A model generated the notes under the pieces. The model was not told the origin of the DNA and searched no databases. It saw only the letters and a list, made by a program, of their open reading frames with translations. A stretch of DNA of 42,242 bases from Campylobacterota bacterium (lineage in GTDB: Bacteria > Campylobacterota > Campylobacteria > Campylobacterales > Sulfurimonadaceae): NCBI GenBank assembly GCA_030837195.1, contig JAUPKZ010000003.1, positions 1 to 42,242 on the forward strand, given 5' to 3'. The first letter of the stretch is position 1, and each line of letters starts with the position of its first letter. Position numbers and translations under genes: made by a program. Below, in pieces: positions 22,542-24,780 of the stretch.

Positions 22542-23807
22542 TTATAAAGCTTGATAAGCAATATCTGTACGGAGTTTTTTGCCTGCAAAGTGAACTTGAC
22601 CGCATCTAAGGTAGGCTCTGTCTCTTGCCTCTTTAATTGTGTCTCCAACTCCTACGCACACCAAAACTCTTCCGCCATCGGCATAAAGGAGACCGTCTAT
22701 CAAACTCACACCTGCATATGAAATATGTGTATATTTTTCAATCTCTTCATGATAAACATTATCTAAGATGATTTCTGCCGGCGTTGAGTTGCTATAAGGA
22801 TAGTTAGCACTTGCCATCACGACACCCACTGCGTACTGTTTGGAGAACTCTACTTTTATCTCGCTGAGTCTTTTTGTAGCGGCTTTATAAAACATATCGC
22901 TAACGCTTGAAGTCATAAGCGGCATAAGTATCTCACATTCAGGATCTCCAAAGCGCACATTAAACTCCAGTGTATATGGTTCACCCTTTACAACCATTAT
23001 CCCTATGAAAAGCACACCCTCAAACGGAGCATTCTCTTTTTTCATTCCATCTAGCGTAGGGCGGATGATCCTCTCTCTTACCTTTTGATAAAGCTCATAA
23101 TCAACAAGCGGGGTAGGAGCATAAGCGCCCATTCCACCGGTATTTGGTCCTTCATCGTTGTTTAGAAGTCTTTTATGGTCTTGAGCTGCCGGCAAAAGAA
23201 TATAGTCTTCCCCGTCACAAACTGCAAACATAGAGAGTTCATACCCGTCTAAAAACTCTTCTACGACAACTTTTCGCCCTGCATCGCCAAAGCTTTTTCC
23301 GCTTAACATCTCAGAAATTGCTTTTTTTGCTTCATCGTGTGTTTTTGCAATTATTACACCCTTGCCGCCGCACAATCCGTCTGCTTTGACTACTATAGGC
23401 GTAGTTAGGGTATTTGTAAATCTAAAAGCGTCTTCTATGGAAGCCGTCTCTATGTACGCGGCAGTCGGAATATTATACTTTGCCAAAAAGTTTTTCATAT
23501 ATACTTTTGAGCCCTCAAGCTGCGCTGCAGCCTTGCTAGGACCAAATATAACAAGCCCCTTAGCCTTAAAAATATCTACGACTCCATCCACTAGAGGTCC
23601 CTCAGGACCTACGATAGTCAAATCGATGTTATTCTCTTTTGCATATTCTGCCAATTTGTTATAATCTTTAATGTTAAGATTTGTTCCCAAAGAGCTTGTT
23701 GCACCGTTTCCGGGCATAAAAAAGAGTTCATGAACTTCTTGCTCTTTTGATATCGCACGAGCTATAGAGTACTCTCTTGCTCCGTTGCCTAAAATTAAAA
23801 TTTTCAT
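22542..23807 (-). CDS. purD: phosphoribosylamine--glycine ligase
   Basis: [53 protein letters not shown]. Confidence 0.97.
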
Positions 23808-23899
23808 AAAAAACTCCAAATAGTTCAAATAATTTTCAATGCTACATTTTGCTAGATTATATCATATTGTAGGTTAAATTGGTTTATAGATTGCAGATA

Positions 23900-24095
23900 A
23901 AAAAGGTCCCGAGTAGCCGTCTCGCGTTTGGCTTGGTTCTAAAAGCCGTATTTGGGCGAAGAGAGGATTTTCTAACGGCGGCAAAATCTCGGCAGAGTCA
24001 ACATACCTCAAACGATAACACCGACACACGAAAGCCCTACTAGTTCGCTATTTTAAAATGTAGAACCCTCATAGGCGATATTTCGAACTACCCAG
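23900..24095 (-). ncRNA. candidate structured small RNA, possibly 6S RNA
   Basis: unannotated hemD-purD intergenic; minus-strand promoter TTACAA-N17-TATAAT (-10 at 24102-24107); closing stem CTGGGTAG/CTACTCGG between the ends; U-tract at the 3' end; no ORF. Confidence 0.6.
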
Positions 24096-24101
24096 AATAT
24101 C

Positions 24102-24136
24102 ATTATACAAAATTTTTATCTGCTTTGTAAATAAAA
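24102..24136 (-). promoter_or_regulatory. sigma70-like promoter of the candidate sRNA
   Basis: minus strand TTACAA agcagataaaaattttg TATAAT (17-nt spacer). Confidence 0.6.
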
Positions 24137-24144
24137 ATTTAGAA

Positions 24145-24780
24145 CTACTCTGCCAATGCAGCCTCTACACAGCTCTCTATCGATGTGTTTTGGCTAATTT
24201 CATATTTTACGCCATTTGGCAAAGATGCTGCGGTTGTTGTGCCTATGACTATCACTTTTGCATTCGGATGTATTGTGTTATTTTTTAAAAAACACTCTAT
24301 GGATGATGGGGAGGTGAAGATAAGCGTAGAATCATCATCTACTCTTACGCTCAAAATCTCTTGTGAACACTCACTCACATAAAGAGTAGCCTCATCTATG
24401 AGATATCCTGCTTCCTTGCTTCTTTGAACAAAATCAGAAGCGATAAACTCGGCTCTTAAGTAAAGCCATCGTGTCTCTTTTGAAAACTCTCGTATATTTT
24501 TTATAAGATTATCGCCATATCCATCGCCCGTAGCCAAAATCTTGCCACCAAAACTTTGATATTCATTCGATGTTTTTGTAGATACGCAGAGTGCGGGAGT
24601 ATCGATAAAATCTTTTTTATCATACTGTTCTAACGCTTTTATAGTCTGTTTTGAAGTAATTATAAGATAGTCATATTTTGAAAAATCGATGTCAGGCTTT
24701 AAAAACCTGACATCCAACGATTTTATATTGATGGCATGCTCACTTTTGGAAGTGGCAAAAAGATATATTTTTTTTGACAT
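24145..24780 (-). CDS. hemD: uroporphyrinogen-III synthase
   Basis: DDSTLIFTSPSSIECFLKN..KVIVIGTTTAASLPNG pattern of HemD. Confidence 0.85.
   Translation of the reverse strand: MSKKIYLFATSKSEHAINIKSLDVRFLKPDIDFSKYDYLIITSKQTIKALEQYDKKDFIDTPALCVSTKTSNEYQSFGGKILATGDGYGDNLIKNIREFSKETRWLYLRAEFIASDFVQRSKEAGYLIDEATLYVSECSQEILSVRVDDDSTLIFTSPSSIECFLKNNTIHPNAKVIVIGTTTAASLPNGVKYEISQNTSIESCVEAALAE

What the first reader, a model, noticed from the sequence alone, without database searches (positions are those of the whole stretch)
23893..24123. Unannotated ~196-nt RNA gene between hemD and purD: 6S RNA candidate
A 340-bp gap in an otherwise tightly packed region. The minus strand shows TTACAA-N17-TATAAT, start near 24095, 5' CTGGGTAG able to pair over 8 bp (with wobbles) with 3' CTACTCGG, then CCTTTTTT at the end. 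Length and end-to-end pairing fit 6S RNA, and I recall (unverified) epsilonproteobacterial 6S RNA being linked to purD. An 11-bp inverted repeat GCAGATAAAAA...TTTTTATCTGC brackets the whole unit, one copy inside the promoter spacer and one across the U-tract, and is unexplained.
Basis: partly seen in the sequence, partly recalled or inferred. Interest (0 to 1): 0.7.

Follow-up and report, generated by a model that had tools for sequence, protein, structure and literature searches.

The report
6S RNA gene upstream of purD
The gap holds the gene for 6S RNA, a well-known small RNA that blocks RNA polymerase in bacteria; this form, next to purD in Campylobacter-like bacteria, has been described before, so it is ordinary, although the family catalogue holds only part of it and files it as a switch for purD.

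Summary
In a Sulfurimonas genome, the 340-bp hemD-purD gap carries on the minus strand a TATAAT box, an RNA of about 195 nt with a closing stem (10 bp, then 3 more after a bulge), and a T-tract. Rfam places 134 nt of it in RF01069 ('purD RNA motif', filed as Cis-reg; 75.7 bits). Published RNA-seq and Northern work on C. jejuni (PMC3847290) found that this motif is part of a longer 185-nt 6S RNA that yields a pRNA, and that H. pylori has the homologue at the same place. The 6S interpretation is right and already known for this group.

Added here: (1) the RF01069 model omits about 60 nt of the 5' end; (2) covariation across the class supports the whole 6S-type rod; (3) RNA and purD are unlinked in several genomes, so it is not primarily a purD regulator; (4) one strand of the inner closing helix can pair in two ways, both supported by covariation, resembling the E. 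coli release hairpin; (5) a full-length model finds the RNA in 15 of the 16 sampled genomes that RF01069 missed. The 11-bp inverted repeat occurs in none of 72 relatives and is probably chance. The '-35' box is not conserved.

The parts
23901..24099 (-). 6S RNA gene (about 195-nt RNA; predicted 5' end 24095-24097, 3' end about 23901)
   Evidence: Full-length covariance model R1, 127.2 bits, E 1.8e-31 in own genome (window is a training row); single strong hit in the genome (next best 16.8 bits)
23907..24040 (-). Part covered by Rfam RF01069 'purD RNA motif' (terminal arm, 3' bubble strand, 3' strand of closing stem)
   Evidence: cmscan 75.7 bits, gathering score 41
24102..24107 (-). -10 box TATAAT of the 6S promoter
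   Evidence: Read directly; exact TATAAT 63-90 nt 5' of the RF01069 start in 87 of 101 loci of the class
24084..24097 (-). 5' strand of closing stem
   Evidence: RNAalifold and pair counts: 13 pairs, 96.7% of cells paired, 8 pairs with changes on both sides
23907..23919 (-). 3' strand of closing stem
   Evidence: As above
24061..24067 (-). 5' strand of inner closing helix P2 (GGUUCUA)
   Evidence: Five P2 pairs counted: 96.7% paired, 4 of 5 with changes on both sides
23935..23941 (-). 3' strand of helix P2 (UAGAACC)
   Evidence: AGAACC is the second invariant run in the genus alignment
24058..24072 (-). Predicted pRNA template (5'-AUGAGGGUUCUACAU), inferred
   Evidence: Holds the longest run of columns at least 95% conserved, GGGTTCTACAT; position by analogy with other 6S RNAs, not measured
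23930..23947 (-). 3' bubble hairpin GGCUU...AAGCC, alternative to P2
   Evidence: Read directly here; the class-wide register of this hairpin has 89.4% paired cells, 4 of 6 pairs with changes on both sides
23962..24040 (-). Terminal (apical) arm, approximate limits
   Evidence: Helices 3-5 of the counted structure, 86-98% paired
23899..23904 (-). T6 tract; possible terminator, not conserved in relatives
   Evidence: Read directly; alignment of relatives
24113..24123 (.). One arm of the 11-bp inverted repeat (probably chance)
   Evidence: absent in 72 of 72 relatives
23893..23903 (.). Other arm of the 11-bp inverted repeat (probably chance)
22542..23804 (-). purD, downstream neighbour
   Evidence: NCBIfam TIGR00877, 478 bits
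24145..24780 (-). hemD (uroporphyrinogen-III synthase), upstream neighbour
   Evidence: NCBIfam uroporphyrinogen-III synthase model, E 1.3e-26, below the curated cut-off

Best explanation
This is the 6S RNA gene of a Sulfurimonas species: a free-standing small-RNA gene with its own sigma70-type -10 box, giving a rod-shaped RNA of about 195 nt (closing stem, inner helix P2, central bubble, terminal arm). By homology with 6S RNAs studied elsewhere it should bind the housekeeping RNA polymerase holoenzyme as a mimic of melted promoter DNA and so hold it back. On nutrient return the polymerase would copy the bubble-proximal 5' strand (GGGUUCUACAU) into a short pRNA; this would unwind P2, and the freed 3' strand would favour the 3' hairpin, releasing the polymerase. 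Shown here: homology, promoter box, rod structure with covariation, and covariation for both alternative pairings. Inferred: transcription in this species, polymerase binding, pRNA start site, and the release switch.
For: RF01069 match. C. jejuni RNA from the same place is a 185-nt 6S RNA, the highest-transcribed ncRNA there after rRNA and tRNA, with a 13-nt pRNA; H. pylori homologue also upstream of purD (PMC3847290). TATAAT conserved at the 5' end of the unit. Whole structure: 36 pairs, 92.5% of cells paired against 76.1% in shuffles, 29 pairs with changes on both sides, 0 of 500 shuffles reach the score, and sliding by one column drops pairing to 48% or less. P2 alone 96.7% paired, the alternative hairpin 89.4%. 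The two longest runs at least 95% conserved in 76 relatives are GGGTTCTACAT and AGAACC, the predicted pRNA template and its P2 partner. E. coli-type 6S RNAs are known to form a 3'-bubble hairpin with the P2 3' strand on pRNA synthesis, important for release (PMC8876501). The RNA persists where purD is absent nearby or distant.
Against: RF00013, the main 6S model, does not match. No transcript data exist for this genome. No polymerase binding or pRNA is shown in Sulfurimonas. In Sulfurimonas P2 is nearly invariant, so it has no covariation within the genus, and the hairpin register differs there from other families. Lowest-energy folding of the window alone prefers another 5' hairpin by about 3 kcal/mol.
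Confidence: 0.95

Rival explanations
1. A cis-acting leader element (riboswitch-like) that regulates purD, as RF01069 is typed in Rfam and as was first proposed for C. jejuni.
For: Rfam type Cis-reg; RNA lies just upstream of purD in most genomes, in some about 20 nt before the start codon.
Against: The RNA is kept where purD is not downstream: in L172 and L173 it follows hemD with an unrelated gene after it, and purD lies about 136 and 194 kb away in G028 and G004 and on other contigs in G006 and G212. In L159 the order hemD-RNA-RDD-lptD remains without purD. In L045 and L049 an opposite-strand gene separates RNA from purD. The rod closes end to end and I saw no conserved terminator/anti-terminator or RBS-masking feature. 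C. jejuni 6S was detected as a discrete 185-nt RNA.
Confidence: 0.03
2. A dual-function unit: 6S RNA plus read-through or processing that also supplies the purD leader, so purD expression is coupled to 6S transcription (the E. coli 6S gene also lies upstream of a folate-related gene; from memory, not checked). This would be in addition to the 6S role, not instead of it.
For: Most relatives lack a clear T-tract terminator at the 3' end and purD is close behind in most genomes.
Against: The window has a T6 tract and about 95 bp between it and purD; linkage is broken in several genomes.
Confidence: 0.3
3. A new small-RNA family unrelated to 6S that only resembles it in length and end pairing.
For: RF00013 does not match.
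Against: RF01069 match plus the published identification of the same locus as 6S RNA with pRNA in C. jejuni and H. pylori.
Confidence: 0.02

Closest known systems
6S RNA of Campylobacter jejuni and Helicobacter pylori (purD-linked epsilonproteobacterial 6S RNA; PMC3847290, citing the H. pylori primary-transcriptome work)
   Same: Same place upstream of purD, overlaps the same RF01069 motif, similar length (185 nt reported; about 195 here), closing stem, bubble and terminal loops.
   Different: Sequence has diverged; Sulfurimonas reads GGGUUCUACAU at the predicted pRNA template where many other families read GGGUCCAACA. Transcript and pRNA are measured there, not here.
Rfam RF01069 'purD RNA motif'
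   Same: Full-length match of its 125 positions, 75.7 bits.
   Different: The model lacks about 60 nt of 5' sequence, hence the 5' strands of closing stem and P2, and it is typed as a cis-regulator.
Escherichia coli 6S RNA (ssrS, RF00013)
   Same: Overall rod layout; a 3'-bubble hairpin that can use the 3' strand of the inner closing helix.
   Different: No match to RF00013; the epsilon hairpin is shorter (5-6 bp against 9 bp reported for E. coli).
Bacillus subtilis 6S-1 RNA
   Same: Rod layout with a 3'-bubble hairpin.
   Different: Release there involves a central bubble collapse helix between the 5' bubble and the P2 3' strand (PMC8876501); I did not test for such a helix here.

Membership tests
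[quoted passage not shown]
   36-pair structure, 92.5% paired, 29 pairs with changes on both sides, 0/500 shuffles; closing stem found independently by RNAalifold
6S RNA (functional class) | Free-standing RNA of roughly 150-200 nt with its own promoter | tested here: inconclusive
   -10 box conserved in 87 of 101 loci and spacing fits; no transcript data for this species
6S RNA (functional class) | Binds housekeeping sigma-RNA polymerase holoenzyme | not testable with these tools
   Needs biochemistry
6S RNA (functional class) | Serves as template for pRNA | not testable with these tools
   Shown for C. jejuni and H. pylori relatives in PMC3847290; only a conserved candidate template here
Rfam RF00013 (6S / SsrS model) | Match above gathering score 46.4 bits | tested here: not met
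   No match up to E 5 in the gap or E 10 in the genome; none over the cut-off in 10 Campylobacterota genomes
Rfam RF01069 (purD RNA motif) | Match above gathering score 41 bits | tested here: met
   75.7 bits, all 125 positions
Rfam RF01069 as a cis-regulator of purD | Always linked in cis to purD | tested here: not met
   No purD within 1.5 kb in L159, L165, L172, L173, L174; separated by an inverted gene in L045, L049
E. coli-type 6S release switch | 3'-bubble hairpin competes with inner closing helix for the same strand | tested here: inconclusive
   Both pairings covary class-wide; in Sulfurimonas the hairpin encloses rather than uses the strand; no biochemical test

The most novel reading that the evidence does not exclude
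Campylobacterota 6S RNAs carry a conserved strand-exchange switch: the 3' strand of P2 (GAACC / GGGCC / GGGUC / GAGCU in different families) pairs either with the 5' strand that is copied into pRNA or with an upstream 3'-bubble segment as a hairpin, so that pRNA synthesis flips one into the other, as in E. coli. The three segments change together across families.
Probability: 0.55. Interest if true: 0.4.

Novelty: new member of a known kind. Interest (0 to 1): 0.22.

Why it matters
It settles that the unannotated gap is a housekeeping RNA gene. It also shows that the public model for this family is cut short at the 5' end and labelled as a purD regulator, so 6S RNA may go unnamed in Campylobacterota annotation and some lineages are missed. 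A full-length model found it in nearly every genome tried and points to where the pRNA and the release switch should lie, which is easy to test in laboratory C. jejuni strains or cultivable Sulfurimonas.

Tried and rejected
RF00013 search of the own genome and nine others: nothing over the cut-off. Single-sequence folding: not informative. The 11-bp inverted repeat as a regulatory or transposon-like feature: simulated chance about 3.5%, absent in 72 relatives, most of which hold a different conserved element in the promoter spacer. The '-35' TTACAA: not conserved. ORF explanation: only 51- and 54-aa ORFs overlap the RNA, and it varies by compensatory changes and indels. Rfam scan of the f6 genomes' purD loci found nothing, but R1 without filters found the RNA upstream of purD in both (52.6 and 37.9 bits). 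Wehner et al. 2014 on 6S dissemination could not be read (not held); it may already report some of the distribution found here.

Full report
What is there. On the minus strand of the 340-bp gap between hemD (24145-24780) and purD (ATG at 23804) lie TATAAT at 24107-24102, an RNA unit from about 24096 to about 23901, and a T6 tract at 23904-23899. The genome belongs to Sulfurimonas or a close relative: the nearest PurD relatives, 83-90% identical, are almost all labelled Sulfurimonas.

What it is. Rfam puts 23907-24040 in RF01069, the 'purD RNA motif', at 75.7 bits. A study of C. jejuni reports that the region upstream of purD, once proposed as a purine riboswitch, makes a 185-nt RNA that starts further upstream, folds like 6S RNA, is the highest-transcribed ncRNA after rRNA and tRNA, and is copied into a 13-nt pRNA; H. 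pylori has the homologue at the same place (PMC3847290). The window's element is the Sulfurimonas version. RF00013 does not match it, nor over the cut-off any of nine other Campylobacterota genomes tested, so that negative is a limit of RF00013 for this group.

Distribution. RF01069 matches 283 of 299 genomes of the class at E 0.001 or better. In 87 of 101 loci inspected an exact TATAAT lies 63-90 nt before the start of the RF01069 match, so the Rfam model lacks about 60 nt of 5' sequence. A full-length model R1 (199 positions, 36 pairs) finds the RNA in 13 of the 16 RF01069-negative genomes and, without filters, immediately upstream of purD in two more, both of family f6. Only G174 stays negative. 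In a sample of 121 genomes 119 match; the two misses are those f6 genomes. The window and 53 other rows trained R1, so their own scores are partly by construction.

Structure. RNAalifold on 54 diverse sequences returned the closing stem by itself. Counted on that alignment, the closing stem has 96.7% of cells paired, with 8 of 13 pairs showing changes on both sides. The whole 36-pair rod has 92.5% paired against 76.1% in shuffles; sliding partners by one column drops pairing to 48% or less. Within Sulfurimonas relatives the same structure has 96.8% paired and 17 pairs with double changes (that alignment was fitted to the model and leans towards it).

An alternative pairing. I picked out by eye a helix, P2, between the 5' strand GGUUC and the 3' strand GAACC. 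Five pairs, 96.7% paired, four with changes on both sides, 0 of 500 shuffles as high in covariation score. The 3' strand of P2 also forms, in most families, the 3' arm of a hairpin that RNAalifold predicts; that hairpin is 89.4% paired, four of six pairs with double changes. The two cannot form together where they use the same strand. In Sulfurimonas the hairpin is GGCUU/AAGCC, enclosing UUAGAACC, so the competition there is one of geometry, not of the same bases. In E. coli-type 6S RNAs a 3'-bubble hairpin using the P2 3' strand forms on pRNA synthesis and drives release (PMC8876501). The longest run of columns at least 95% conserved in 76 relatives is GGGTTCTACAT, the next AGAACC, which fits a pRNA template and its P2 partner. 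The switch is therefore a supported inference, not a demonstration.

Not primarily a purD regulator. In L172 and L173 the order is guaA-hemD-RNA followed by an unrelated gene; purD lies about 136 kb away in G028, about 194 kb away in G004, and on other contigs in G006 and G212. In L159 hemD-RNA-RDD-lptD remains with purD gone from the place. In two Sulfurimonas loci an opposite-strand gene sits between RNA and purD. Coupling of purD to read-through from the 6S promoter in other genomes is not excluded.

The unexplained details. The 11-bp inverted repeat occurs in about 3.5% of simulated gaps of the same composition and in none of 72 relatives. In most relatives the promoter spacer instead carries TCAAG at a fixed place, which the window lacks; in 26 Sulfurimonas genomes seven of the eight exact matches to TCAAGTA-N8-GTATAAT are 6S genes. 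The TTACAA '-35' is peculiar to the window; relatives have no such box.

Verdict. The additions are a full-length model, a near-universal distribution, evidence against the cis-regulator label, and a supported but untested release switch.

Noticed in passing
Upstream of the 6S -10 box in Sulfurimonas relatives (e.g. L047, L055, L058; absent in the window at 24108-24130): A conserved element AAATCAAGTATnnTTTTTGTATAAT: TCAAG stands at a fixed distance (-16 or -15 from TATAAT) in 53 of 72 loci; 7 of 8 exact genome matches of TCAAGTA-N8-GTATAAT in 26 genomes are 6S genes. Function unknown.
   Followed up: partly
L204 / L211 (genome G307, contig C9) compared with L210 / L212 (contig C13): One Sulfurimonas genome holds a second 6S unit: a 268-bp copy (95.5% identical, promoter included) beside a tyrosine-recombinase-like ORF (judged by eye), away from hemD-purD. 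It could be a mobile-element-linked duplication or a mixed assembly.
   Followed up: partly
L045 475-2312, L049 378-2443: In two Sulfurimonas genomes an opposite-strand gene of 546-623 aa, with a low-complexity acidic middle, is inserted between the 6S RNA and purD.
   Followed up: no
L173 1683-3108: In a family f5 genome the gene directly downstream of the 6S RNA, in purD's place, is a reverse transcriptase (PF00078, E 1.4e-12).
   Followed up: no
L217 2771-2955 (-), L218 2774-2962 (-): Both family f6 genomes have a divergent 6S RNA just upstream of purD that Rfam does not detect at all.
   Followed up: partly
Rfam RF01069 as a family (window 23907-24040): The model is short by about 60 nt at the 5' end and typed Cis-reg, although published work calls the RNA 6S.
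   Followed up: yes
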